A stretch of 64,000 nucleotides of DNA from Comamonas sp. lk (GTDB lineage: Bacteria > Pseudomonadota > Gammaproteobacteria > Burkholderiales > Burkholderiaceae_C). The stretch lies in NCBI RefSeq assembly GCF_900564145.1, contig NZ_UOOB01000001.1, forward strand, positions 967,732-1,031,731, in the 5' to 3' direction. Below the pieces are notes generated by a model. It had not been told where the DNA came from, made no database searches, and worked only from the letters and a program-made list of their open reading frames with translations. This document shows, piece by piece, positions 20,060-30,539 of this stretch; within the stretch, counting starts at the first letter, position 1; every line of letters starts with the position of its first letter. Made by a program: the position numbers and the translations under genes.

Positions 20060-21064
20060 TTACACCTGGGCGCCGGAGTCCTTGACCACCTTGCCCCACT
20101 TGGCCGATTCGGCCTTGATGTAGGCGGCAAATTCGGCTGGCGTATCGATCATGATGTCGCCGCCCTGGTCATTGATCTTCTTGATCACGGCCGGGTCCTT
20201 GAGCACTTTGGCAATCGCGGCATGCAGGCGCTGCTGCACGGCCGCTGGAGTTTTGGCTTGCGTCCACAGACCGAACCACGACGTGGCTTCGTAGCCGGGT
20301 ACGCCGGCTTCGGCGACGGTGGGCACGTCAGGCAGTTCGGGCGAGCGCTTGGCCGTGGTCACGGCAATCGGGCGCAGCTTGCCGGAGCGCACATGCTGGA
20401 TGGCCGAAGGCATGTTGTCGAACATCACGGCGATCTGGTTGCCCAGCAAGTCGGTGATGGCCGGGGCGCTGCCCTTGTAAGGCACATGCACCATATCCAG
20501 GCCTGTCATAGAGCGAAACAGCTCGCCCGACAGGTGAATCGAGCTGCCGCTGCCCGAGGAACCGTAGTTGAGCTTGCCGGGGTTGGCCTTGGCGTAGGCG
20601 ATCATTTCCTTGACTGTCTTGAAGGGCTGCTTGGGGTTGGCAACCAGCAGATTGGGCACGGTGGCCACGCGCGTCAGCGGCGCAAAGTCCTTGATGGGAT
20701 CGAAACCGGGTTTTTGGTAGAGCGAGGCATTGATGGCATGCGTTCCCACCGTTCCCATGAACAGCGTGTACCCGTCGGCCGCAGCACGTGCTGCCGCTGC
20801 GGCACCGATGTTGCCGCCCGCGCCGGGCTTGTTGTCAACGATCACGGTCTGGCCCAGCTCCTGCTGCAGCGCCTGGCTGACGATGCGGGCCAGGATGTCG
20901 GTAGTTCCACCGGCGGCAAAGGGCACGACGATGGTTAGAGGCTTGCTGGGGAATACATCCTGAGCTGCCGCGGGGGCCATACCGACGGCGCCCAGCAAAG
21001 CGGCAGCGGCCAGGGACTTCAGGCCGGCACGGCGGGAAATGATTGGGGAAGGCTTGAACATCAA
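20060..21064 (-). CDS. Bug/TctC-family periplasmic solute-binding protein
   Basis: A 334-residue Bug receptor, the large Burkholderiales family of periplasmic binding proteins for carboxylates and related solutes. The N-terminus has a twin-arginine-like motif SRRAGLK followed by an Ala-rich core and AAAQ cleavage site. PLTIVVPFAAGGTTDILAR and GKLNYGSSGSGSSIHL are family signatures. It is the last gene of the minus-strand catabolic cluster. No TctA/TctB membrane genes accompany it, so it may be an orphan receptor working with a distant transporter or as a sensor. The ligand is unknown; an aromatic-derived acid would fit the context. Confidence 0.9.
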   Translation of the reverse strand: MMFKPSPIISRRAGLKSLAAAALLGAVGMAPAAAQDVFPSKPLTIVVPFAAGGTTDILARIVSQALQQELGQTVIVDNKPGAGGNIGAAAAARAAADGYTLFMGTVGTHAINASLYQKPGFDPIKDFAPLTRVATVPNLLVANPKQPFKTVKEMIAYAKANPGKLNYGSSGSGSSIHLSGELFRSMTGLDMVHVPYKGSAPAITDLLGNQIAVMFDNMPSAIQHVRSGKLRPIAVTTAKRSPELPDVPTVAEAGVPGYEATSWFGLWTQAKTPAAVQQRLHAAIAKVLKDPAVIKKINDQGGDIMIDTPAEFAAYIKAESAKWGKVVKDSGAQV

Positions 21065-21225
21065 TGTCTCCTGAATAATAAGTTGCGCGAAAGGGGCAAG
21101 GCTTGCGGCTGTGAGCCCCGGGTCTTGGGTGAGCAGGCATACATGGCTTGCTCATCCACAAGGCGTACAGGTCCATCCGGGATCTGTCTGCCGGCAATCA
21201 GTGACTGCCGGCAGACAGGAACCGC

Positions 21226-21510
21226 TTATTCCTGAACGATGGAAGAAGGGTGATTGGCCAGCGGCGTGACCTTGATCTGCATATAGGGGAACAGAGGCAG
21301 GCCGCTGAGCAGGGTGTGCAGCTCGTCGTTGCTGGCGGCGTCGAAAATGCTGACGTTGGCGTACTCGCCGACCACGCGCCACAGGTGGCGCCATTGGCCT
21401 TGGCGCTGCAGCTTTTGCGAATACTCTTTTTCTTCCAGCTTGATTTTTGCTGCCAGTTCGGGGTCCAGCGACTGGGGAATCTGGACAATCATTTCAACCA
21501 TGTACAACAT
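21226..21510 (-). CDS. catC: Muconolactone isomerase-like protein
   Basis: At 94 residues this matches the size and fold class of muconolactone delta-isomerase (MIase), which converts muconolactone to 3-oxoadipate enol-lactone as a ring of ferredoxin-like subunits. Recognisable segments are VEMIVQIP, LQRQGQWRHLWRVVGEYANVSIFD and LPLFPYMQIKVTPL. The RxxxxHLWR-VGxxAN-SIFD pattern is typical of CatC. It sits with genes for the enol-lactone hydrolase, CoA-transferase and thiolase. MIase relatives such as methylmuconolactone isomerases act on substituted lactones, so the true substrate may differ. Confidence 0.8.
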   Translation of the reverse strand: MLYMVEMIVQIPQSLDPELAAKIKLEEKEYSQKLQRQGQWRHLWRVVGEYANVSIFDAASNDELHTLLSGLPLFPYMQIKVTPLANHPSSIVQE

Positions 21511-21557
21511 GTTTTGTTACTCCTGTAGGGACAGAATGGGGCAGGGAAAGCCGGGCT

Positions 21558-22898
21558 TCAAAGATGGGGCCAGATGAGCATGGTGCTGGCGTAGATGGCG
21601 CCGACCAGCAGCATGGAGACCACGGTGTAGCCCATGATGTCTTTGAGCTTGAGCTTGGACAGCGCCAGGGCAGGCAGGATCCAGAAGGGTTGCACCAGGT
21701 CATTCCAGCCGTTGCCCAACATGACGGACATGGCGGTTTGTGCCTGCGATGCGCCCAGCTTGACGGCCGCGTCGATCATGAACGGGCCTTGCAGCACCCA
21801 GTGGCCGCCACCGGACGGGGCAAAGAAGTTGATGACGAAGGAGCTGACCAGACCCCACAGCGGCAAGGTGTCTGCGCTGGAGATGTTGACGAAGACATGG
21901 GCGATGGACTCCACCAGACCGGAGCCATGCATGATGGCCATGATGCCTGCGTAGAACGGGAACTGCAAAATGATGCCGCCTATGGTCTTGACGCCTTCAT
22001 TGACCTTTTCCACGTACTGCAGAGGGGTCTTGAGCAACAGCACACCCAGGAACAGGATGAAGAAGTTGATCATGTTCAGATCCAGGTTGCCGCCCTTGTA
22101 AAAGTGCAGACCCACATAGCCCATGCCGCACAGGCCGATCAACAGGCTGAGCACGCGGCTGTTGTTCAGGCGCGAGGCCAGGGTTTTTTCGTCACCCAGC
22201 AGCTCACCGGCACCTGCCGCAGGCTTGCTGTCTTGCGCCGCCACCACGGGGTCCAGTTCCACCACTTTTTCACCTTGCTTGGGGTGCATGGCCGCATTGA
22301 GCAAAGGCAGGGCAATCAACACCACCAGGCTGGTGATCAGGATGGGGGCCGAGAAGATGGTTTGCGTCAGGGGAATCAGCCCCATGCTGCTCTCGAAGGC
22401 ATGGCCCTTGGTGGAAATCAACACCGGGATGGTGGCCGAGAAACCCAGGCTGTACATTGTGAAGCCGGTATAGGCCGAGGCGATGATCAAGGGGTAGTGC
22501 ACGCCCTTGACCTTCAGCGCCAGCTTGCGGGCCATGATGCCGCCGATCACCAGACCAAAGCCCCAGTTCAGATAGCTGCCCACGCAGCCCACGATGGTGG
22601 CCACGATGATGGCTTGCCTTGGGGTGTGCACATGGTTGGCAATCTTGTTCAGAAAGCGGTTGACCACGGGGGCCGCAGCCAGCACATAGCCCATGACCAG
22701 AATCACGGCCATCTGGGTGGTAAAGCCCAGCAAGCTCCAGAAGCCTTTGCCCCAGTCCTCGACCACCAGGTTCACGGGGCGGCTTTCCACGGCAAAGGCC
22801 AGCACCATGGTCAGCAGGGTGAGCATGATGGCGAAGACGAACGGGTCGGGCAGATACTTGCGCATCAGCTCCGTGAAGAACGCGGTGATTTTTGACAT
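21558..22898 (-). CDS. AtoE-type short-chain fatty acid transporter
   Basis: A polytopic inner-membrane protein (446 residues from the ATG at 22898) of the AtoE/short-chain fatty acid uptake family. It begins MSKITAFFTELMRKYLPDPFVFA and has about 12 hydrophobic segments. Typical blocks are NWGFGLVIGG, FAPSGGGHWVLQGPF and GNGWNDLVQPFWILPAL. It would import a small carboxylate or ketoacid across the inner membrane. In this cluster the cargo could be a dicarboxylate or lactone intermediate of aromatic breakdown; that is an inference. An upstream in-frame ATG at 22946 lacks family similarity. Confidence 0.88.
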   Translation of the reverse strand: MSKITAFFTELMRKYLPDPFVFAIMLTLLTMVLAFAVESRPVNLVVEDWGKGFWSLLGFTTQMAVILVMGYVLAAAPVVNRFLNKIANHVHTPRQAIIVATIVGCVGSYLNWGFGLVIGGIMARKLALKVKGVHYPLIIASAYTGFTMYSLGFSATIPVLISTKGHAFESSMGLIPLTQTIFSAPILITSLVVLIALPLLNAAMHPKQGEKVVELDPVVAAQDSKPAAGAGELLGDEKTLASRLNNSRVLSLLIGLCGMGYVGLHFYKGGNLDLNMINFFILFLGVLLLKTPLQYVEKVNEGVKTIGGIILQFPFYAGIMAIMHGSGLVESIAHVFVNISSADTLPLWGLVSSFVINFFAPSGGGHWVLQGPFMIDAAVKLGASQAQTAMSVMLGNGWNDLVQPFWILPALALSKLKLKDIMGYTVVSMLLVGAIYASTMLIWPHL

Positions 22899-22984
22899 GG
22901 CGTTTGGCCTTGTTGTATGAGGTGTTTGGCGAGAAAGGGCTGGCATCGACCCACGGAAGTGGGGCTGCGCAGGCCGTGAAAGAT

Positions 22985-23728
22985 TTAGATGCTGGCGACG
23001 CCGACCGTCATGCCGCCGCAGACGTAAAGCACCTGTCCGGTGACGAAGCCGCTGCGGTCATCGAGCATGTAAGACACGGCATGGGCCACGTCTTCTGGCG
23101 TGCCCACGCGTTTGACGGGCACCGACTGAATGATTTTTTGCGTGCGCGGCGCATCGGGCGGATTGGCCTTGTCGAACAAGGCGGTACGTATGGGCCCTGG
23201 GCCGATGGCATTGGCCGTGATGCCGTACTGCCCCAGTTCCAGCGCCCAGACCCGGGTCATGCCGATCAGGCCGGCCTTGCTGGCGGCATAGGCCGTGCGC
23301 AAGTCCTTGCCCAGGGCGGCACGCGAGGACATGTTCACGATGCGGCCAAAGCCTGCGGCCTGCATGCCGGGCAGCAGGGCCTGCATGCATTGAAAGGCGC
23401 AGCGCAGATTCAGGGACATGGCCAGATCGAATTCGGCCAGGGTTTGCGAAGCCGCATCGTTGGGCACCACCACGCCCACGTTGTTGATCAGGCGGGTGAT
23501 GGGCCCGTCCTTCAAGGCCTCGTTCAGCGCACGGGCCGTGTCTTGCGGATCGCTCAAATCGGCCTGAATGGCACCGGGGATGTGGTCCACCATGCGGTCG
23601 ATGATGACGGGTTCATAGCCGTCCTCGCGGCAACGCTGTGCCGCAGCGGCACCGATGCCGGCACCGCCGCCGGTGATCAAAACGCGGGGGCGTGGGGTGG
23701 TGGAAGCGGAGGTGTGCGTAGAAGTCAT
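22985..23728 (-). CDS. Short-chain dehydrogenase/reductase
   Basis: A classical SDR oxidoreductase (247 residues) with the cofactor motif TGGGAGIGAAAA near the N-terminus, NNVG, catalytic Ser in VNMSSRAALG, YAASK with the catalytic Tyr and Lys, and the PGPIRT region. It would oxidise or reduce a hydroxyl/keto group with NAD(P)(H). The C-terminus ends GQVLYVCGGMTVGVASI. It lies inside the pca-type cluster and may act on a ring or lactone intermediate. The ATG at 23728 removes a non-conserved N-terminal extension. Confidence 0.9.
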   Translation of the reverse strand: MTSTHTSASTTPRPRVLITGGGAGIGAAAAQRCREDGYEPVIIDRMVDHIPGAIQADLSDPQDTARALNEALKDGPITRLINNVGVVVPNDAASQTLAEFDLAMSLNLRCAFQCMQALLPGMQAAGFGRIVNMSSRAALGKDLRTAYAASKAGLIGMTRVWALELGQYGITANAIGPGPIRTALFDKANPPDAPRTQKIIQSVPVKRVGTPEDVAHAVSYMLDDRSGFVTGQVLYVCGGMTVGVASI

Positions 23729-23750
23729 GGTGCGGGCTTGAATAAAATGT

Positions 23751-24047
23751 TTAGAGGCAGCATTCACCGGCCAGATAGGCCTTGCGCCAGCGGGTGATGC
23801 AGACGTTGGCAAACAGCCCTGCCTGGAAGAAAGGGTCGGCCTCGATGAAGTCCTGTGCGGCTTGTCGGGTGTCGAGGTCCACGACATACAGGCCGCCGCC
23901 CAGATCCTTGCCCTCGTCGTCCAGCTTGGCGCCGCAGGCCAGCAGCAGGTGCTGGTGGGCGCTTAAAAAGTCCAGATGTGCCGGGCGATGGGCCTGGCGC
24001 ACGGCCTGGTGGTCGGGCTTGTCAAAGGTTTCGATGATGTAAGGCAT
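23751..24047 (-). CDS. YciI-like domain protein
   Basis: A 98-residue protein with the YciI-like fold (dimeric alpha/beta-barrel, related to muconolactone isomerase and EthD). It starts MPYIIETFDKPD, followed by HLDFLSAH, GGGLYVVDLDTRQAAQDFIEADPFFQAGLF and a C-terminal WRKAY. The conserved His in RPAHLDFL and the Asp in EADPF are the family's putative active-site residues. Relatives catalyse dehalogenation or isomerisation, or have no known activity. It is placed between the cyclase-like hydrolase and the SDR in the cluster. Confidence 0.85.
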   Translation of the reverse strand: MPYIIETFDKPDHQAVRQAHRPAHLDFLSAHQHLLLACGAKLDDEGKDLGGGLYVVDLDTRQAAQDFIEADPFFQAGLFANVCITRWRKAYLAGECCL

Positions 24048-24085
24048 GGTGGCGGCTGTGAAAGTGACGGCGGGCGCGGTGTGGC

Positions 24086-25147
24086 TTACACCGTGGCGAT
24101 GGGCGTGACCGGAGAGGCCACGGCGCCAGGCAGGTGCAGCGGAGGAGCCGTCAGCAAAAAATGGTGGCGCTGGTGGGCACGCAGCCATTGCGCCAGCGGT
24201 GTCAGATGCCACAGCTCGCCGAGGTGCACGCCCAGCTTGAACAAGCAGTGCTCGTGCAAAGGCAGGGCCGAGCAGCAGGCGGCGCCGGGTTGGGCTGGGT
24301 GGGCCTCTACGGCATAGTTGTCGGCAGCAATCGCGGCAATCTGGCTGTCGGTGATCCACTGCAGCAGCTTGTCGTCACGCCCGTTCAGGACGGCGCAGCT
24401 GTGGTTGAGTACGTCGGGGTCGGGTTGTTTGTGCATCTCCAGCACGCGCTGGGCGAAACCGGTGTGCAGGCACAGCATGTCGCCGGGCTCGATCTCGACG
24501 CGGTCGGCATCGATCACGCGCTGCAACTCGTCATAGCCGATCAGCGTGCGGGCATCGCCGTAGTGGGCACGCAGGTCCAGCATCACGCCGCGGCCTTGTA
24601 CGCCGTTGCGGGCCATGCCTTCAATGCCCAAGGCCTTGGCGCAGCTGGTGCTGGCGGCTTCGTCTAGGCGCTCGGGGATGCCGGTGCCGCTCACATCGGC
24701 GGGGCCGACGATGTCTATGCCAGCCGCAAAGCCGTTGTAGTACAGCGCTTCGGGCAGGCCGTCGCCATTGGCGTCAAACAGCGCACCCACATGGGCCAGT
24801 CCGTCCCATTGCGTGGAGTACTGCAGCGACAGAATGGCCATATCGTCCGAGAGCACGTCGGTGCGGCCGGGCTCCAGGGTCTGCAGCAGGCAGTTGAAAT
24901 TGACCAGGCCTTTGCGCTGCAAGGGACGCAGCACCGGGGGCTTGCGGTTGGGGTTGAGCGCACTGCCGCCGGGGTAGTCCAGCGGCAGGCTCAGGGAAAA
25001 GCGCAGGCCTTCACGCACCTGGGCCACGCCCTGGCGCACTTTTTCAGGGGTGAGCAGGTTCAGACGGCCCAGTTGGTCGTGGTCGCCAAAGTCTCCCCAG
25101 GTGGAGCCTTCGGGGCGCTGTCGCCAGCGTGGATTGGATGCAATCAT
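24086..25147 (-). CDS. Cyclase-family (kynurenine-formamidase-like) metal-dependent hydrolase
   Basis: A 353-residue protein of the cyclase family (PF04199), which includes bacterial kynurenine formamidase and other amide or lactone hydrolases. Seen are WGDFGDHDQLGRLNLLTPE at the N-terminus, QYSTQWDGLAHVGALFD where the metal-binding HGTHxD block lies in kynurenine formamidase, and PGDMLCLHTGFAQ and AADNYAVEA later. The QWDGLAH variant is typical of a longer subfamily with different specificity. Position between the pcaD-like and YciI-like genes suggests it opens a cyclic intermediate. The substrate is unknown. Confidence 0.85.
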   Translation of the reverse strand: MIASNPRWRQRPEGSTWGDFGDHDQLGRLNLLTPEKVRQGVAQVREGLRFSLSLPLDYPGGSALNPNRKPPVLRPLQRKGLVNFNCLLQTLEPGRTDVLSDDMAILSLQYSTQWDGLAHVGALFDANGDGLPEALYYNGFAAGIDIVGPADVSGTGIPERLDEAASTSCAKALGIEGMARNGVQGRGVMLDLRAHYGDARTLIGYDELQRVIDADRVEIEPGDMLCLHTGFAQRVLEMHKQPDPDVLNHSCAVLNGRDDKLLQWITDSQIAAIAADNYAVEAHPAQPGAACCSALPLHEHCLFKLGVHLGELWHLTPLAQWLRAHQRHHFLLTAPPLHLPGAVASPVTPIATV

Positions 25148-25222
25148 GCTTGTCTCCCATACCGCGGTCTGCTCTTTGGCCTGTGGCCTGAGTCTTGTTC
25201 TGGACCGGTGTGTGCAAAAAGT

Positions 25223-26020
25223 TCAGTGCTGCTTCAAAAAGTCAGCCAGTGCCTGCTCGAAGGCCGCAGCAGCCTCCAGGTTGGACAGGTGCGAGGCGGG
25301 CACCGTAGCCAGTACCGACCCCGCAATTACGGCGTGCATGGCTTGCGCATCGGCGACCGTGGTCACGGGGTCGTGCTCACCAGCGATCAGCAGGGTGGGC
25401 ACGCGGATGCCAGAGATGGCGCTCCGCAGGTCTTCTTTGGCCAGGGCTTCGCAGCAGCTGGCATAGCCTTCGGGGCTGATGCCGGCAATCCAGTCTTGGG
25501 CGGTTTGCACCACCTCAGGCTGTACAGCGGCAAAGCTTTCCGTGAACCAGCGGCTGGGCGAAGATGCGGCCAGCGCCTGCATGGCAGCCGTACCTTGGGC
25601 GCGCACCAGGGCCGCGCGCTCCAGCCAGGCAGATTCCACGCCGATCTTGGCCGCGCTATTGGCCACCGTGATGCTGCGCAGGCGTGCAGAAGCATTCACT
25701 CCCAACCACAGCCCGGTCAGCCCACCCATGGAGATGCCGCAAAAATGGGCCTGCACTATATGCAGTGCATCCAGAATGGCCAGCACGTCCTGGCCCAACT
25801 GCGCAAAGCTGTAAGGGCCAGGGTTGCACACGCTGGCGCCGTGGCCGCGGGTGTCGTAACGCAGCACGCGCCAATCGGCAGACAGGGTGGCGGCCTGCGC
25901 GTCCCACATCTCCAGGGTGGTGCCCAGGGAGTTGGACAGCAGCAGAACCGGCGCATCGGCCGGGCCTTGCAGGGCGATACGGAAGGTGCCGGTGGCGGTA
26001 GGCAGGGAGGTGGTGCTCAT
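25223..26020 (-). CDS. pcaD: 3-oxoadipate enol-lactonase (alpha/beta hydrolase)
   Basis: PcaD hydrolyses 3-oxoadipate enol-lactone to 3-oxoadipate. The 265-residue alpha/beta hydrolase has the nucleophile elbow GISMGG with Ser97, an oxyanion/HG-like region LLSNSLGTTLEMWD near 30, LLIAGEHDPVT with the acid residue, and the final VPASHLSNLEA His. These match enol-lactonases of the pca/cat pathways. The ATG at 26020 fits the family. It lies directly downstream of the thiolase gene with a 20-bp gap. Confidence 0.88.
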   Translation of the reverse strand: MSTTSLPTATGTFRIALQGPADAPVLLLSNSLGTTLEMWDAQAATLSADWRVLRYDTRGHGASVCNPGPYSFAQLGQDVLAILDALHIVQAHFCGISMGGLTGLWLGVNASARLRSITVANSAAKIGVESAWLERAALVRAQGTAAMQALAASSPSRWFTESFAAVQPEVVQTAQDWIAGISPEGYASCCEALAKEDLRSAISGIRVPTLLIAGEHDPVTTVADAQAMHAVIAGSVLATVPASHLSNLEAAAAFEQALADFLKQH

Positions 26021-26040
26021 GTCAAACGCTCGCGGCCGTC

Positions 26041-27252
26041 TTAAACTTTTTCCAGAATCACGGCTATGCCCTGACCCACGCCTATGCACATGGTGCACAA
26101 GGCATAGCGACCACCCAGCGTGTGCAGCTGGTTGACGGCCGTGGTGGCCAGACGGGCGCCCGATGCACCCAGCGGGTGGCCCAGTGCAATCGCGCCGCCC
26201 CATTGGTTGACGCGGGCGTCGTCGTCGGCAATGCCCAGATCGCGCAGCACGGCCAGACCCTGGGCGGCGAAGGCTTCGTTGAGCTCAATCACATCCATCT
26301 GGTCAAGAGTCAAACCGGTCTGGGCGAGGACCTTGCGCACGGCAGGCGCGGGGCCAAAACCCATGATGCGGGGCGCAACGCCGGCCGTAGCCATGCCGAC
26401 CACGCGGGCGCGGGGCACCAAGTTGTATTGCTGGGCGGCTTCCTCATTGGCCAGCAGCAGGGCGCAGGCGCCGTCGTTCACGCCCGAGGCATTGCCTGCG
26501 GTCACCGTGCCGTCAGGGCGGACCACGCCTTTGAGCTTGGCCAGCGCTTCCAGTGTGGTGGCGCGGGGATGTTCGTCCTGGCTGACGATGATGGCATCGC
26601 CCTTCTTCTGGGCGATGGAGACGTTGACGATTTCCTTGGCCAGGTAACCTGCCGCAATGGCAGCTGCCGCCTTTTGCTGCGAAGCCAGGGCCATGCGGTC
26701 CTGGGCTTCGCGTTCAATCTTGAAGTCGTCGGCCACGTTCTCTGCGGTTTCCGGCATGGAGTCCACGCCGTACTGGGCCTTCATCAGCTTGTTCACAAAG
26801 CGCCAGCCTATGGTGGTGTCGTACACGGCGTTGTTGCGGCTGAAGGCCGATTCGGCCTTGGGCATGACGAAGGGCGCGCGGCTCATGGATTCCACACCGC
26901 CGGCAATCATCAGGCGGGCTTCACCCGATTTGATGGCGCGCGCCGCTGTACCCACGGCATCCAGACCCGAGCCGCACAGGCGGTTGATGGTGGCGCCGGG
27001 CACATCAATCGGCAGGCCGGCCAGCAGACTGGACATGCGGGCCACGTTGCGGTTGTCTTCACCGGCCTGGTTGGCACAGCCATACAGCACATCGGCCACG
27101 GCCGTCCAGTCCACGCCGGGGTTGCGCTCCATCAGAGCCTTGATGGGCACGGCGCCCAGATCGTCGGTGCGCACGCTGGAGAGCGCGCCGCCGTAACGGC
27201 CAAAGGGGGTGCGGATCGCGTCGCAGATGAAGGCTTGGGATGCAGTGCTCAT
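26041..27252 (-). CDS. pcaF: 3-oxoadipyl-CoA thiolase
   Basis: PcaF cleaves 3-oxoadipyl-CoA with CoA into succinyl-CoA and acetyl-CoA, the last step of the beta-ketoadipate pathway. The 403-residue thiolase has nucleophile Cys93 (NRLCGSGLDAVGTAARAI), the GNASGVNDGA block, GHPLGASGAR, and the C-terminal CIGVGQGIAVILE. The N-terminus AFICDAIRTPFGRYGGALS matches the PcaF subgroup. It is flanked by the CoA-transferase and enol-lactonase genes. The upstream spacer holds a type A palindromic repeat. Confidence 0.93.
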   Translation of the reverse strand: MSTASQAFICDAIRTPFGRYGGALSSVRTDDLGAVPIKALMERNPGVDWTAVADVLYGCANQAGEDNRNVARMSSLLAGLPIDVPGATINRLCGSGLDAVGTAARAIKSGEARLMIAGGVESMSRAPFVMPKAESAFSRNNAVYDTTIGWRFVNKLMKAQYGVDSMPETAENVADDFKIEREAQDRMALASQQKAAAAIAAGYLAKEIVNVSIAQKKGDAIIVSQDEHPRATTLEALAKLKGVVRPDGTVTAGNASGVNDGACALLLANEEAAQQYNLVPRARVVGMATAGVAPRIMGFGPAPAVRKVLAQTGLTLDQMDVIELNEAFAAQGLAVLRDLGIADDDARVNQWGGAIALGHPLGASGARLATTAVNQLHTLGGRYALCTMCIGVGQGIAVILEKV

Positions 27253-27293
27253 GGTGTTGTCTCCGGGCGTGGCCCATGGTTTTAAAAATGAGA

Positions 27294-27326
27294 GCTGCCA
27301 GCGCTTGATACATAAGCGCTAGCGGT
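27294..27326. repeat. Intergenic palindromic repeat, type A, copy 2
   Basis: GCTGCCAGCGCTT (27294-27306), seven-base loop, AAGCGCTAGCGG (27314-27325) between pcaJ and pcaF. Arms, loop length and sequence match the copies at 5302 and 46626. Confidence 0.6.
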
Positions 27327-27348
27327 CGTTTTTGCTTGTAAAAAGCCT

Positions 27349-28032
27349 TTAGGCGCTGGCGGCAGCGATGGGCAGGCCGACAATGCGCTCCAGTGCTTCG
27401 TGCGTCAGACCCTCGACGGTATCGATCAGACGCAGGCCCTGGGGCGTGCATTCCAGCGTGCACAGATCGGTGTAGATGCGTTTGACGCAGGCCAGGCCGG
27501 TGAGGGGGTAGGTACAGGCCGAGACGACCTTGCATTCGCCCGTCTTGCTGAGCAGATCCATCATCACCCAGGTGGATTTGGCGCCCACGGCCAGATCCAT
27601 GGCGCCGCCCACGGCGGGAATGGCACCGGGCTCGCCGGTGCTCCAGTTGGCCAGGTCGCCGGTGGCCGAGACCTGGAAGGCGCCCAGCACGCAGATATCC
27701 AGATGGCCGCCGCGCATCATGGCAAAGCTGTCGGCATGGTGGAAATAGCAGCCGCCAGGCAGCAGCGTCACGGGCTGCTTGCCGGCATTGGTCAGGTCAT
27801 AGTCTTCCTGGCCTTCGGCCGGTGCCGGGCCCATGCCCAGAATGCCGTTTTCGCTTTGCAAAATGACTTCGCGGCCGGCTGGGATGTGGTTGGCCACCTG
27901 GGTCGGCATGCCAATGCCCAGGTTGACGTAGGCCCCGTCGAAAATATCTTCGGCCACGCGCTGGGCCAGCTCTTGCTTGCTGCGTTTTTGGTAGCTGCTC
28001 ATGGTGCTTCTTTCGGCAGTTGCGGCGCTCAT
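27349..28032 (-). CDS. pcaJ: 3-oxoadipate CoA-transferase subunit B
   Basis: PcaJ with PcaI transfers CoA from succinyl-CoA to 3-oxoadipate. The 227-residue protein has GAYVNLGIGMPTQVANHIP and SENGILGMGP, where the Glu is the residue that forms the covalent CoA-thioester intermediate in the family. GGAMDLAVGAK and YPLTGLACVKRIYTD follow. The start at 28032 overlaps the pcaI stop by 4 bp (ATGA), typical of coupled transferase subunits; an internal ATG ten codons later is an alternative. Confidence 0.93.
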   Translation of the reverse strand: MSAATAERSTMSSYQKRSKQELAQRVAEDIFDGAYVNLGIGMPTQVANHIPAGREVILQSENGILGMGPAPAEGQEDYDLTNAGKQPVTLLPGGCYFHHADSFAMMRGGHLDICVLGAFQVSATGDLANWSTGEPGAIPAVGGAMDLAVGAKSTWVMMDLLSKTGECKVVSACTYPLTGLACVKRIYTDLCTLECTPQGLRLIDTVEGLTHEALERIVGLPIAAASA

Positions 28033-28745
28033 GCCGATTTCTTGAAACCACCGGCCAGGGTGGCCACGCGGTCGATCTTGACGATCTGGCTGACATAGAT
28101 GCCGGGAGTGACCACGGCTTCGGGGTCCAGCGCGCCCAGCTCCACCAGTTCGTGCACCGTGGCAATCGTGTGCTTGGCAGCTGATGCCATCACCGGTCCG
28201 AAGTTGCGGGCCGACATGCGGTAGGTGAGGTTGCCCCAGCGGTCGCCTTTTTCGGCCTTGATCAAGGCCAGATCGCCGTGGATGGGGTACTCCAGCACAT
28301 AGTGCTTGCCGTTGATCTCGCGGGTTTCTTTGCCGGCTGCCAGTTCTGTGCCGTAGGCCGTGGGGCAGAAGAAGGCGCCTACACCTGCACTGGCCGCACG
28401 CAGGCGTTCGGCCAGATTGCCCTGAGGGACCAGTTCCAGTTCGATCTTGCCGCTGCGGTAGAGATCATCAAAGACCCAGCTATCCACCTGGCGGGGAAAG
28501 CTGCAAATGATCTTGCGTACCTGGCCGCTTTTGAGCAGCGCCGCCAGGCCTTGATCGCCGTTGCCGGCATTGTTGTTGACCACGGTCAGGTCGCGTGCGC
28601 CCTGTGCAATCAGTCCGTCTATGAGCTCGTTGGGATTGCCCGAGGTGCCAAAGCCCCCGATCAGTACCGTGGCTCCGTCCTGTACGCTAGCCAGCGCCTG
28701 GGCGATGGTGTCGGTGATTTTGTTGATCACTTTGATAGTCTCCAT
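28029..28745 (-). CDS. pcaI: 3-oxoadipate CoA-transferase subunit A
   Basis: The A subunit of 3-oxoadipate:succinyl-CoA transferase (238 residues). Family blocks are TVLIGGFGTSGNPNELID near the N-terminus, VVNNNAGNGDQGLAALL, ICSFPRQVDSWVF, and AFFCPTAYGTELAAGKE. It is the first gene of the minus-strand cluster. The ATG at 28745 lies close to the two operator-like repeats that separate it from the divergent IclR regulator. This strongly suggests the operon is controlled by that regulator. Confidence 0.93.
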   Translation of the reverse strand: METIKVINKITDTIAQALASVQDGATVLIGGFGTSGNPNELIDGLIAQGARDLTVVNNNAGNGDQGLAALLKSGQVRKIICSFPRQVDSWVFDDLYRSGKIELELVPQGNLAERLRAASAGVGAFFCPTAYGTELAAGKETREINGKHYVLEYPIHGDLALIKAEKGDRWGNLTYRMSARNFGPVMASAAKHTIATVHELVELGALDPEAVVTPGIYVSQIVKIDRVATLAGGFKKSA

Positions 28746-28777: not shown

Positions 28778-28811
28778 GTTCGTATAAAGAACAAAAGTTC
28801 GCATAAAGAAT
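28778..28811. promoter_or_regulatory. Two direct operator-like repeats between pcaI and the IclR regulator
   Basis: GTTCGTATAAAGAAC (28778-28792) and GTTCGCATAAAGAAT (28797-28811) repeat with a 19-bp period, about two helical turns. The first is also an inverted repeat (GTTC...GAAC). They occupy the short gap between divergent genes. PcaR/PcaU/PobR-type IclR regulators are known to bind GTTCG-containing repeats, so these are the likely sites for the divergent regulator. Confidence 0.75.
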
Positions 28812-28820
28812 TATAGAGCT

Positions 28821-29717
28821 ATGGAAAAACTTCCCGCTTCCGTATTACCCACAGGTGCAGCTTCTGGAACAGGTGCTAAAGAGGGCCTCCCCACGCTGGC
28901 TGCATCGGATGCAGATTCCAACGCCGTCGCCGATGTGCCGCGCCCAGGCGATAGCTATGTGCAGTCATTTGCACGGGGTCTGGCGGTGATTCGCTCCTTT
29001 AGCGCCGATGCCCCGGCACAGACGCTCAGCGAAGTGGCGGCAAAAGCAGGTTTGACGCGCGCCGGCGCCCGAAGAATTTTGCTGACGCTGCAGACGCTTG
29101 GCTATGTGAAAAGCGATGGCAAGCTGTTTCAGCTGACGCCGCGCATCATGGAGCTGGGCTTTGCCTATCTGAGTTCGACCCCGGTATGGAATCTGGCCGA
29201 GCCCGTGATGGAGCGGCTGGTGGATGAAACCAAGGAGTCCTGCTCGGCAGCCGTGCTCGATGGCAGCGACATCGTCTATGTGCTGCGCGTGCATACCCAC
29301 AAGATCATGAGCACCAACCTGGGAGTGGGCTCGCGCCTGCCGGCTTTCTGGACGTCGATGGGGCGCGTGCTGCTGGCGGGTGAAAGCGATGCATCGCTGC
29401 AGGTTTTGCTGGCCGGCAGAGAGCGGCAGCGATTCACCGCCTTGACCGAGCAGGATGACGAGCAATTGCTGCAGCGCATCCTGCAGGTGCGTGAACAAGG
29501 TTGGGCTTTGGTGGATCAGGAGCTGGAGGAAGGGCTGATCTCGATTGCGGCGCCCATCAAGAATGCTGCCGGGCGCACCGTGGCAGCGCTCAACATCAGC
29601 GGGCAGGCCAACCGCAACAGCGCCCAGATGATGCGCGAGCAGCTGCTTCCTCGCCTGCTGGCATCCACACAGCTCATCAGCCAACTGCTGCGGGCATCGT
29701 CGCGCCTGAATCTTTGA
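28821..29717 (+). CDS. pcaR: IclR-family regulator, PcaR/PobR-like
   Basis: A 298-residue IclR-family transcription factor. The N-terminal 45 residues are low-complexity. The winged helix-turn-helix lies at about 50-115, with LSEVAAKAGLTRAGARRILLTL at 69-90. The effector domain follows, with WNLAEPVMERLVDETKESCSAAVLDG. The SYVQSFARGLAVIRSF start resembles PcaR, PcaU and PobR, which respond to 3-oxoadipate or protocatechuate-type ligands. It is divergent from pcaI across the operator repeats, so it most likely activates or represses the cluster. The gene symbol is by similarity and context. Confidence 0.85.
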   Translation: MEKLPASVLPTGAASGTGAKEGLPTLAASDADSNAVADVPRPGDSYVQSFARGLAVIRSFSADAPAQTLSEVAAKAGLTRAGARRILLTLQTLGYVKSDGKLFQLTPRIMELGFAYLSSTPVWNLAEPVMERLVDETKESCSAAVLDGSDIVYVLRVHTHKIMSTNLGVGSRLPAFWTSMGRVLLAGESDASLQVLLAGRERQRFTALTEQDDEQLLQRILQVREQGWALVDQELEEGLISIAAPIKNAAGRTVAALNISGQANRNSAQMMREQLLPRLLASTQLISQLLRASSRLNL

Positions 29718-29744: not shown

Positions 29745-29837
29745 AAAGTGTGATTAGTCCCCTGAGTTCGGCCCGGGGTTTCATAATCCACAGCTCCTCC
29801 ACCTTGCTTGCCTTGCGTGCAACGCCAGCTTCGCTCC

Positions 29838-30539
29838 ATGGCCCGCCTGCCACGACTCACTCTTGCGGATTTGCCGCACCACATCATTCAACGCGGCAAC
29901 AACGGGGCCGAGATCTTTGTGGATGCCCAGGATCGCCAGACCATGCTGGATTTGCTGCGCGAGATGGCTCGGCGCTTTGATGTGGATGTGCATGCCTATG
30001 TGCTCATGCCCAACCACTTTCATTTGCTGCTCACGCCCAGAACAGAGCTGGGCCTGCCCCAGTTCATGCAGGCTGTGGGGCGCAGCTATGTGCGCTATTT
30101 CAATAATCGCCATGGCCGCAGCGGCACGCTGTGGGAAGGGCGCTACCGCTGCACGGTGCTGCAGGCCAGGGACTGGCTGATCCCGACCATGGTTTCCATG
30201 GATCTGAATCCCGTCCGTGCGGGCTTGGTGCCTAAAGCCGGAGACTGGCCCTGGTCCAGCTATGGCGCCAGCGCGGGCCTGCGCAACGACGCGCTGGTCA
30301 GCCCGCATGCCATGTTCTGGACGCTGGGCAATACGCCGTTTGCGCGCGATGCAGCCTATGTTTCTGCGGTTGATACAGGCCTGAGCAGCGATGCGCAAGA
30401 GCAGATCAGCCACGCCGCCATGCGCGGTTGGGCGCTGGGCGACAGCGATTTCATTGAAAAATTGCAACAAAAAACCGAGCGCCGGATAAGCCGCCAACGC
30501 GCAGGACGCCCGCCAAAAGCCCCCAAGACGCTGTCATAG
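29838..30539 (+). CDS. REP-associated tyrosine transposase (RAYT, Y1-transposase family)
   Basis: A 233-residue HUH single-strand transposase of the IS200-related TnpA-REP family. The N-terminus MARLPRLTLADLPHHIIQRGNN is typical of RAYTs. The metal-binding HUH motif is in PNHFHLLL, and the catalytic Tyr is in the SYVRYFNNRH region. The GTLWEGRYRCT and NPVRAGLV blocks follow. RAYTs are usually domesticated and process small palindromic repeats elsewhere in the genome. It stands alone between the IclR gene and gltB. An AT-rich inverted repeat downstream at 30605-30643 is a candidate substrate. Confidence 0.88.
   Translation: MARLPRLTLADLPHHIIQRGNNGAEIFVDAQDRQTMLDLLREMARRFDVDVHAYVLMPNHFHLLLTPRTELGLPQFMQAVGRSYVRYFNNRHGRSGTLWEGRYRCTVLQARDWLIPTMVSMDLNPVRAGLVPKAGDWPWSSYGASAGLRNDALVSPHAMFWTLGNTPFARDAAYVSAVDTGLSSDAQEQISHAAMRGWALGDSDFIEKLQQKTERRISRQRAGRPPKAPKTLS

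What the first reader, a model, noticed from the sequence alone, without database searches (positions are those of the whole stretch)
20060..28745. Hybrid beta-ketoadipate cluster that may be a new lactone or aromatic-acid utilisation island
MIase-like, enol-lactonase, CoA-transferase and thiolase genes form a complete path from muconolactone to succinyl-CoA and acetyl-CoA. There is no catA, catB, pcaGH or pcaB in the cluster. Instead it holds a cyclase-family hydrolase with a changed metal-binding region, a YciI-like protein, an SDR, an AtoE transporter and a Bug receptor. This suggests uptake of an external acid and its conversion by hydrolase, SDR and YciI-like steps into muconolactone or 3-oxoadipate. 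I know of no described pathway with this exact set.
Basis: inference. Interest (0 to 1): 0.7.

Follow-up and report, generated by a model that had tools for sequence, protein, structure and literature searches.

The report
Lactone-salvage branch of the beta-ketoadipate pathway
This bacterial gene cluster carries the last steps of a well-known pathway for breaking down aromatic compounds but seems to start elsewhere: it probably takes up small six-carbon lactone acids from outside, opens and oxidises them, and burns them for energy, which could explain the natural job of an enzyme type known mainly from pollutant degraders.

Summary
The Comamonas-type genome shows no CatA, PcaGH or over-cut-off CatB, so the lower pathway lacks its usual feed. 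The 'changed' cyclase motif is QxxxQxDxxxH, the recognised trans-dienelactone-hydrolase/MGS0169 subtype. The set recurs across many genera, though it is rare in its class. Some relatives add a free-3-hydroxyacid-type dehydrogenase (HCDH) after the SDR; in three genomes where the SDR sits apart from Cyc it lies beside PcaIJ or a beta-keto-acid cleavage gene. Bartonella apis keeps PcaR-PcaIJF-Cyc-SDR-AtoE and has no MIase match. Best reading: Cyc opens 3-hydroxyadipate lactone, SDR (plus HCDH in relatives) oxidises 3-hydroxyadipate to 3-oxoadipate, PcaIJ/PcaF finish; MIase and PcaD feed external muconolactone into the same intermediate. A dienelactone/maleylacetate rival is weakened: no close maleylacetate reductase was found. 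Substrates are inferred, not shown; YciI is unexplained. New variant of a known kind.

The parts
28029..28745 (-). PcaI, 3-oxoacid CoA-transferase subunit A (start taken at the internal Met; the ORF extends to 28766)
   Evidence: TIGR02429 368.8 vs 128.5 bits
27349..28032 (-). PcaJ, 3-oxoacid CoA-transferase subunit B
   Evidence: TIGR02428 276.7 vs 243.55 bits
26041..27252 (-). PcaF, 3-oxoadipyl-CoA thiolase
   Evidence: TIGR02430 708 vs 597 bits
25223..26020 (-). PcaD, 3-oxoadipate enol-lactonase (start taken at an internal Met)
   Evidence: TIGR02427 271.4 vs 255.85 bits
24086..25147 (-). Cyc, PF04199 cyclase-family, presumably metal-dependent hydrolase of the trans-dienelactone hydrolase/MGS0169 subtype; proposed 3-hydroxyadipate-lactone hydrolase
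   Evidence: PF04199 43.8 bits; QxxxQxDxxxH at residues 109-119; match to 5IBZ/MGS0169 E=1.6e-36 with R68, Q109, Q113, D115, H119, H298, E311 at the places of its active-site residues
23751..24047 (-). YciI-like protein, 98 aa, role unknown
   Evidence: NF009503 170 vs 145 bits
22985..23728 (-). SDR (start taken at an internal Met); proposed 3-hydroxyadipate dehydrogenase giving 3-oxoadipate
   Evidence: PF13561/PF00106; N107, S134, Y147, K151 near-invariant in 41 distinct rows
21558..22898 (-). AtoE-family short-chain fatty acid transporter (start taken at the internal Met)
   Evidence: PF02667 436.2 bits
21226..21510 (-). Muconolactone delta-isomerase (MIase)
   Evidence: TIGR03221 150.8 vs 130.6 bits; the only PF02426 match in this genome
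20060..21064 (-). Bug/TctC solute-binding receptor
   Evidence: PF03401 265.5 bits
28821..29717 (+). PcaR/PcaU/PobR-family IclR-type regulator, divergent from pcaI
   Evidence: TIGR02431 326.2 vs 284.75 bits
28778..28792 (.). Operator-like palindrome GTTCGTATAAAGAAC
   Evidence: sites of this type beside the regulator in 27 of 29 distinct regions; background 0.049 per 460 bp
28797..28811 (.). Second operator-like site GTTCGCATAAAGAAT, 19 bp start to start from the first

Best explanation
A PcaR-controlled salvage operon for external C6 lactone acids that ends in the lower beta-ketoadipate pathway. AtoE and/or the Bug receptor bring in the acids. Arm 1: Cyc, a lactonase of the trans-dienelactone-hydrolase subtype, opens the saturated lactone of 3-hydroxyadipate (4-carboxymethyl-gamma-butyrolactone); the SDR oxidises the free 3-hydroxyadipate to 3-oxoadipate (in some relatives a second, lambda-crystallin-type dehydrogenase sits beside it, plausibly for the other enantiomer). 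Arm 2: MIase and PcaD convert imported muconolactone through the enol-lactone to 3-oxoadipate. PcaIJ and PcaF turn 3-oxoadipate into succinyl-CoA and acetyl-CoA. Shown here: gene content, conservation, co-occurrence, no detected upstream ring-cleavage enzymes. From established family knowledge (recalled): the reactions of MIase, PcaD, PcaIJ and PcaF, and that PcaR-type regulators answer to pathway intermediates such as 3-oxoadipate. Inferred: substrates of Cyc and SDR, transport roles, enantiomer split. YciI has no assigned step; it may be a second isomerase or eliminase on the muconolactone arm.
For: Cyc has the QxxxQxDxxxH motif that PMC5341072 ascribes to trans-dienelactone hydrolase and the esterase MGS0169 (passages), plus counterparts of MGS0169's active-site residues; a 61% relative sits in a cluster annotated dioxygenase-Cyc-enolase family-maleylacetate reductase. 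Of 100 distinct Cyc genes compared, 35 have the SDR (>=60% identity) next to them; of those 35, AtoE is nearby in 31, YciI in 30, PcaD in 29, PcaI, PcaJ and PcaF in 28 each, MIase in 22, HCDH in 9. HCDH proteins pass NF004783 (L073, L084; L066, L072; L149) and the nearest solved relatives of the L084 protein are lambda-crystallins. Of four genomes whose Cyc has no complete SDR beside it (L065, L066, L068, L069), three have the SDR elsewhere at 72-76% and the fourth has an SDR fragment and HCDH beside Cyc. In the two Pseudomonas that other locus holds HCDH, SDR, PcaI and PcaJ in a row, with an MFS transporter between in the one that was scanned (L149); in Pollutimonas, with no MIase and no PF00775 match, it is a PcaR-type regulator beside BKACE-Bug-SDR. 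In Agrobacterium pTiCFBP4996 a 64% SDR lies with CoA-transferase A/B, GntP permease and a thioesterase. Control: in 22 chosen genomes with Cyc outside the module clade no SDR match (E<=1e-50) exceeds 54%. Bartonella apis keeps PcaR-PcaIJF-Cyc-SDR-AtoE and has no MIase match in its genome. Own genome: no CatA/PcaGH, no CatB over cut-off. A published pathway uses the same logic for deoxyribonate: lactonase, SDR on a free 3-hydroxyacid, beta-keto-acid cleavage (PMC6365646, passages).
Against: No biochemical or growth data; no listed paper reports bacterial use of 3-hydroxyadipate lactone. The Cyc subfamily also occurs in a chlorocatechol-like cluster, so its ancestral substrate may be a dienelactone. 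In C. metallidurans (L004) and Pseudomonas (L068, L069) Cyc lies with AtoE, MIase and YciI without SDR or PcaIJF beside it, which the two-arm reading does not explain neatly; on the C. metallidurans megaplasmid the best SDR match is 50%. Most MIase-free loci belong to genomes with MIase elsewhere. Clade-marking residues N67, V82, C86, G94 are absent from three module Cyc (L004, L005, L079_1). 14 of 20 non-Comamonas records searched have strong PF00775 matches, and two Comamonas carriers (G009, G010) have CatB, so the module is not tied to absence of the upper pathway. The operator-like site was not found in Bartonella apis and Pollutimonas. The Pollutimonas BKACE is below every specific cut-off shown, including 3-oxoadipate:acetyl-CoA acetyltransferase (190.3 vs 350), and PcaI/PcaJ models are subfamily-level, so 3-oxoadipate is not proven there. 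SDR relatives also sit in other settings, such as beta-oxidation-like operons and beside citryl-CoA lyase. Among the 25 models shown of 217, the SDR passes no cut-off. YciI has no role in this reading.
Confidence: 0.48

Rival explanations
1. Cyc is a genuine trans-dienelactone hydrolase: external dienelactone (or a substituted muconolactone) is hydrolysed to maleylacetate, which is reduced to 3-oxoadipate by the SDR or by an enzyme elsewhere.
For: Subfamily motif of the P. reinekei trans-dienelactone hydrolase; chlorocatechol-like cluster in Caballeronia L003; Cyc plus SDR would also suffice to reach 3-oxoadipate if the SDR reduced maleylacetate.
Against: With one maleylacetate reductase as query, the window's genome gives only distant matches (best 31%, 62.5 bits), and 1 of 15 searched genomes has a close one (G411, 56%); a divergent reductase could be missed. 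The SDR has a classical YxxxK site, while known maleylacetate reductases are Fe-ADH proteins (recalled). Relatives add a 3-hydroxyacid-type dehydrogenase instead.
Confidence: 0.2
2. One reading: Cyc, SDR and YciI together convert one unknown acid into muconolactone, which MIase, PcaD, PcaIJ and PcaF finish.
For: All genes are co-located; YciI, MIase and Cyc stay together even in C. metallidurans and Pseudomonas loci without the SDR; most genomes with MIase-free loci have MIase elsewhere.
Against: 13 of 35 SDR-linked Cyc loci have no MIase detected nearby (one, L060, on a short contig), and Bartonella apis has no MIase match in its genome; in two Pseudomonas the SDR and HCDH form a separate locus with PcaIJ.
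Confidence: 0.13
3. Remnant catechol branch: a catechol ortho-pathway operon that lost catA and catB, with Cyc, SDR and YciI as unrelated passengers.
For: MIase and PcaD pass equivalog cut-offs; CatB without any PF00775 match occurs in carriers G009 and G010.
Against: The genes recur in similar order across several families and into Actinomycetota (L093); Cyc-SDR is kept in loci where MIase is lost; regulator and operator-like sites recur.
Confidence: 0.08

Closest known systems
Beta-ketoadipate pathway, catechol branch (cat/pca genes)
   Same: MIase, PcaD, PcaF over equivalog cut-offs, PcaI, PcaJ and the PcaR-type regulator over subfamily cut-offs.
   Different: No CatA, PcaGH or over-cut-off CatB in cluster or genome; adds Cyc, SDR, YciI, AtoE and Bug, and apparently an MIase-independent entry to 3-oxoadipate.
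trans-Dienelactone hydrolase of Pseudomonas reinekei MT1 and cca-type 4-chlorocatechol clusters (the cca cluster is recalled; L003 resembles it)
   Same: PF04199 with the QxxxQxDxxxH motif; likely metal-dependent hydrolysis of a C6 lactone acid.
   Different: No dioxygenase, cycloisomerase or maleylacetate reductase in the module; linked instead to hydroxyacid-type dehydrogenases. The MT1 protein itself was not compared; its sequence was not at hand.
MGS0169 metal-dependent esterase (5IBZ, PMC5341072)
   Same: Only solved relative found by sequence; its active-site residues have counterparts.
   Different: Metagenomic esterase without a known pathway; similarity modest (129.5 bits).
Oxidative deoxyribonate pathway (PMC6365646)
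   Same: Same logic: lactonase, SDR on a free 3-hydroxyacid, then CoA-dependent cleavage of the beta-keto acid.
   Different: Different substrate; beta-keto-acid cleavage enzyme instead of PcaIJ/PcaF; the lactonase is not of this family as far as I recall.

Membership tests
Beta-ketoadipate pathway, catechol branch | MIase, PcaD, PcaIJ, PcaF present | tested here: met
   NCBIfam cut-offs passed
Beta-ketoadipate pathway, catechol branch | Catechol 1,2-dioxygenase (CatA) in the genome | tested here: not met
   Only a 39.7-bit PF00775 match, in an ORF that reads like a secreted protein
Beta-ketoadipate pathway, catechol branch | Muconate cycloisomerase (CatB) | tested here: not met
   Best 90.6 bits vs cut-off 334.95
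Beta-ketoadipate pathway, protocatechuate branch | Protocatechuate 3,4-dioxygenase (PcaGH) | tested here: not met
   PF00775
Beta-ketoadipate pathway, protocatechuate branch | PcaB and PcaC | not tested
trans-Dienelactone hydrolase subtype of PF04199 | QxxxQxDxxxH in place of HxGTHxDxPxH | tested here: met
   Residues 109-119; the four positions are identical in all 97 Cyc aligned (two long outliers, L043 and L044, left out); motif described in PMC5341072
trans-Dienelactone hydrolase subtype of PF04199 | Hydrolysis of trans-dienelactone | not testable with these tools
   Needs an enzyme assay
cca-type dienelactone pathway | Maleylacetate reductase present | tested here: not met
   One query protein; best match 31%, 62.5 bits in the own genome
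PcaR/PcaU/PobR regulators | Model TIGR02431 over cut-off | tested here: met
   326.2 vs 284.75 bits
3-hydroxyadipate (lactone) catabolism | Cyc and SDR activity on 3-hydroxyadipate lactone / 3-hydroxyadipate | not testable with these tools
   Only genomic association

The most novel reading that the evidence does not exclude
A further entry into the beta-ketoadipate pathway that needs no aromatic ring cleavage: uptake of 3-hydroxyadipate lactone, opening by a trans-dienelactone-hydrolase-type lactonase, and oxidation by free-3-hydroxyacid dehydrogenases (SDR alone here; SDR plus a lambda-crystallin-type enzyme in some relatives, one per enantiomer) to 3-oxoadipate. This would be the natural function of at least one clade of these hydrolases, and the same operon would also scavenge muconolactone leaked by neighbouring aromatic degraders.
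Probability: 0.45. Interest if true: 0.7.

Novelty: new variant of a known kind. Interest (0 to 1): 0.57.

Why it matters
It would add a non-aromatic feed to a textbook pathway, give a physiological role to a clade of trans-dienelactone-hydrolase-type enzymes that I recall mainly from pollutant degradation, and supply enzymes for 3-hydroxyadipate and its lactone, which are of interest in adipate-type chemical production (recalled). It also suggests that C6 lactone acids such as muconolactone are exchanged nutrients in microbial communities. Two simple enzyme assays would settle the main claim.

Tried and rejected
Disfavoured: dienelactone to maleylacetate as the main path in this organism (no close maleylacetate reductase found); a supply of muconolactone by catA/catB elsewhere in the genome; chance assembly; a new metal motif. 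Led nowhere: an even sample of 370 genomes of the class held no Cyc at E<=1e-80 except the window's own, so it gave no context data; it also shows that this Cyc is rare in the class. Paper searches for 3-hydroxyadipate with lactone or 3-oxoadipate and related terms showed no such pathway in their listings (of those papers none was opened). A comparison of residues gave N67, V82, C86 and G94 as marks of the 38-row clade, but three module Cyc outside it lack them, so they mark descent rather than context. In the tree L079_0 was labelled SDR-linked although the SDR belongs to the neighbouring L079_1; L044 and L043 were long outliers, left out of the residue comparison. Not run: structure prediction and fold search.
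Full report
The observation. The window lies in a 4.9-Mb genome. Its nearest named relatives for this locus are Comamonas species (Comamonas avium, 94% for Cyc). On the minus strand from 28745 to 20060 the order is pcaI, pcaJ, pcaF, pcaD, cyc (PF04199), yciI, SDR, atoE, MIase and Bug. MIase, PcaD and PcaF pass equivalog cut-offs and PcaI and PcaJ pass subfamily cut-offs. A divergent regulator at 28821-29717 passes the PcaR/PcaU/PobR model. Between the two sits a tandem pair GTTCGTATAAAGAAC / GTTCGCATAAAGAAT. Sites of this type occur beside the regulator in 27 of 29 distinct regions, against a background of 0.049 per 460 bp; many regions are close kin, the pattern was taken from the window itself, and the two misses are Bartonella apis (L071) and Pollutimonas (L148).

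No ring-cleavage feed. The own genome has one MIase, the one in this cluster. Its single PF00775 match scores 39.7 bits and falls in an ORF that by eye reads like a Tat-exported intradiol-like protein. The best CatB-model match is 90.6 bits against a cut-off of 334.95. Ten of 24 same-genus relatives carry the Cyc at 84-94% identity. Counting the window's genome, 8 of 11 carriers have no PF00775 match above 40 bits; the other three are G007, G018 and G020. Four carriers (G007, G014, G018, G020) lack MIase inside the cluster and have MIase elsewhere. Of the six carriers covered by the CatB search, G000, G013 and G014 have no match over cut-off, while G007, G009 and G010 do. Outside Comamonas absence of ring cleavage is not general. 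One search covered 22 records: two Comamonas genomes (L046, L048, the latter with the same match places as G013) and 20 others, of which 14 have strong PF00775 matches, 3 only weak ones and 3 none.

What Cyc is. Its motif QYSTQWDGLAH (residues 109-119) is the QxxxQxDxxxH form that PMC5341072 (passages read) reports for the metal-stimulated esterase MGS0169 and for trans-dienelactone hydrolase of Pseudomonas reinekei MT1. The four positions are identical in all 97 aligned Cyc. The only PDB match is 5IBZ, which the paper gives as MGS0169. The residues tested or implicated there (Arg87, Gln127, Gln131, Asp133, His137, His286, Glu299) align with R68, Q109, Q113, D115, H119, H298 and E311; I worked out the numbering offset of 18 by hand from the alignment. 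A 61% relative lies in a Caballeronia plasmid cluster annotated dioxygenase, cyclase, enolase-family protein and maleylacetate reductase; the enolase-family protein scores 332.6 against the 334.95 cut-off of the muconate cycloisomerase model. That is the arrangement I recall for 4-chlorocatechol (cca) clusters. Cyc is therefore most likely a metal-dependent hydrolase for C6 lactone acids.

The module. Across 100 distinct Cyc genes in the fetched loci (the window not counted; L044 and the short duplicate loci L142-L147, L151 and L152 left out), 35 have the SDR at >=60% identity within 1.5 kb downstream on the same strand. Among those 35, within 7 kb: AtoE 31, YciI 30, PcaD 29, PcaI 28, PcaJ 28, PcaF 28, regulator 27, MIase 22, HCDH 9. 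Carriers include Comamonas, Corticibacter, Lampropedia, Paracidovorax, Pseudorhodoferax, Paucimonas, Chitinasiproducens, Rhodovulum, Bartonella apis, Pluralibacter and the actinobacterium Kocuria. The set is nevertheless rare: in an even sample of 370 genomes of the class only the window's own has a Cyc at E<=1e-80. In a 99-row tree the module Cyc form a 38-row group with support 100/97 that also holds L065 and L066; L004, L005 and L079_1 fall outside it, and the Caballeronia L003 protein is not resolved.

The missing partner. In Caballeronia L005, Paucimonas L067, Chitinasiproducens L070, Rhodovulum L072, Pluralibacter L073, Paraburkholderia L079, Oxalobacteraceae L084, Kocuria L093 and Burkholderia stagnalis L139 a gene of the 3-hydroxyacyl-CoA dehydrogenase fold follows the SDR. 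The proteins of L073 and L084, L072 and the SDR-poor L066 pass NF004783; the nearest solved relatives of the L084 protein are lambda-crystallins (195.2 and 176.7 bits). As I recall, lambda-crystallin is L-gulonate 3-dehydrogenase, an enzyme that oxidises the 3-hydroxyl of a free C6 acid. In L084 the transporter after PcaD passes NF007710/PRK10406 (720.3 vs 550 bits), which I recall as the alpha-ketoglutarate permease group; that fits a dicarboxylate-like substrate.

The SDR probably makes a 3-oxo acid. Among four genomes whose Cyc has no complete SDR beside it (L065, L066, L068, L069), three hold the SDR elsewhere at 72-76%; the fourth has an SDR fragment and HCDH next to Cyc. In Pseudomonas nabeulensis and P. 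kairouanensis that other locus holds HCDH (51%), SDR, PcaI and PcaJ on one strand; in the one scanned (L149) an MFS transporter lies between HCDH and SDR, and PcaI/PcaJ pass their subfamily models. In Pollutimonas harenae, which has no MIase and no PF00775 match, the SDR follows a BKACE gene and a Bug gene beside a PcaR-type regulator; BKACE enzymes cleave beta-keto acids, but this one passes no specific NCBIfam cut-off. In Agrobacterium leguminum pTiCFBP4996 a 64% SDR lies with CoA-transferase A/B, a GntP permease and a thioesterase; in two actinobacterial plasmids a 71% SDR ends a beta-oxidation-like operon; in Ponticoccus a 55% SDR lies beside an AMP-binding protein and citryl-CoA lyase. 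As a control, in 22 genomes chosen from those whose Cyc lies outside the module clade no SDR match at E<=1e-50 exceeds 54% identity. A published pathway, deoxyribonate catabolism (PMC6365646, passages read), has the same logic with a purified SDR shown to act on a free 3-hydroxyacid.

Mechanism. PcaIJ, PcaF and the PcaR-type regulator point to 3-oxoadipate as the convergence point. The alcohol that an SDR would oxidise to 3-oxoadipate is 3-hydroxyadipate, and the lactone that a trans-dienelactone-hydrolase-type enzyme would open to give it is 4-carboxymethyl-gamma-butyrolactone. Bartonella apis, with a PcaR-type regulator, PcaI, PcaJ, PcaF, Cyc, SDR and AtoE and no MIase match in its genome, is the minimal form; it does have two adjacent PF00775 matches, probably PcaGH, so its PcaIJF also serve another route. 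MIase and PcaD form a second arm for muconolactone. YciI follows that second arm rather than Cyc-SDR: it is missing where both MIase and PcaD are missing (L071, L073, L079, L139), except in Kocuria L093, and it stays with MIase where the SDR is gone (L004, L068, L069).

Rivals. Dienelactone to maleylacetate needs a maleylacetate reductase; with one query protein the own genome gives only distant Fe-ADH-like matches (best 62.5 bits), while the same search finds one at 56% in G411. A C=C-reducing role of the SDR is unlikely from its classical YxxxK site but not excluded. Unexplained: C. metallidurans L004 and Pseudomonas L068/L069 keep Cyc with AtoE, MIase and YciI but without SDR in place; only the megaplasmid of C. 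metallidurans was searched for the SDR (50% at best).

Novelty. Each enzyme family is known; the combination as a lactone-salvage entry did not show in the paper searches made (listings only, open-licence papers only). I rate it a new variant of a known kind.

Noticed in passing
window 29808-30539 (+): ORF that by eye reads like a REP-associated (Transposase_17-type) transposase directly downstream of the PcaR-type regulator; no NCBIfam hit at 1e-30.
   Followed up: no
L006 1045-2166 (G000:C1 around 208362): Intradiol-dioxygenase-like ORF with an apparent Tat signal, the genome's only PF00775 match; weak matches of similar score recur in several Comamonas.
   Followed up: partly
G010:C11:473237-474705 (L125) and G009:C17:4732-5835: Comamonas relatives with a CatB over cut-off (434 and 440 bits) but no PF00775 match; in G010 it sits beside a second MIase and a Bug gene, suggesting uptake of external muconate.
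   Followed up: partly
L003 8121-12285: Caballeronia sp. SBC2 plasmid: dioxygenase, Cyc, enolase-family protein and maleylacetate reductase in a row, resembling a chlorocatechol (cca) cluster.
   Followed up: partly
L138 7207-10852: Rhizobium ruizarguesonis plasmid: SDR, HCDH, beta-keto-acid cleavage-type gene and SMP-30 lactonase beside a sugar ABC transporter, a parallel lactonase/3-hydroxyacid dehydrogenase operon.
   Followed up: no
L134 3580-10142 and L135 3580-10151: Citricoccus and Brevibacterium plasmids carry nearly the same operon (CoA transferase, acyl-CoA dehydrogenase, enoyl-CoA hydratase, thioesterase, SDR at 71%, short HCDH-like gene), in Brevibacterium between two IS3 transposase genes.
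   Followed up: no
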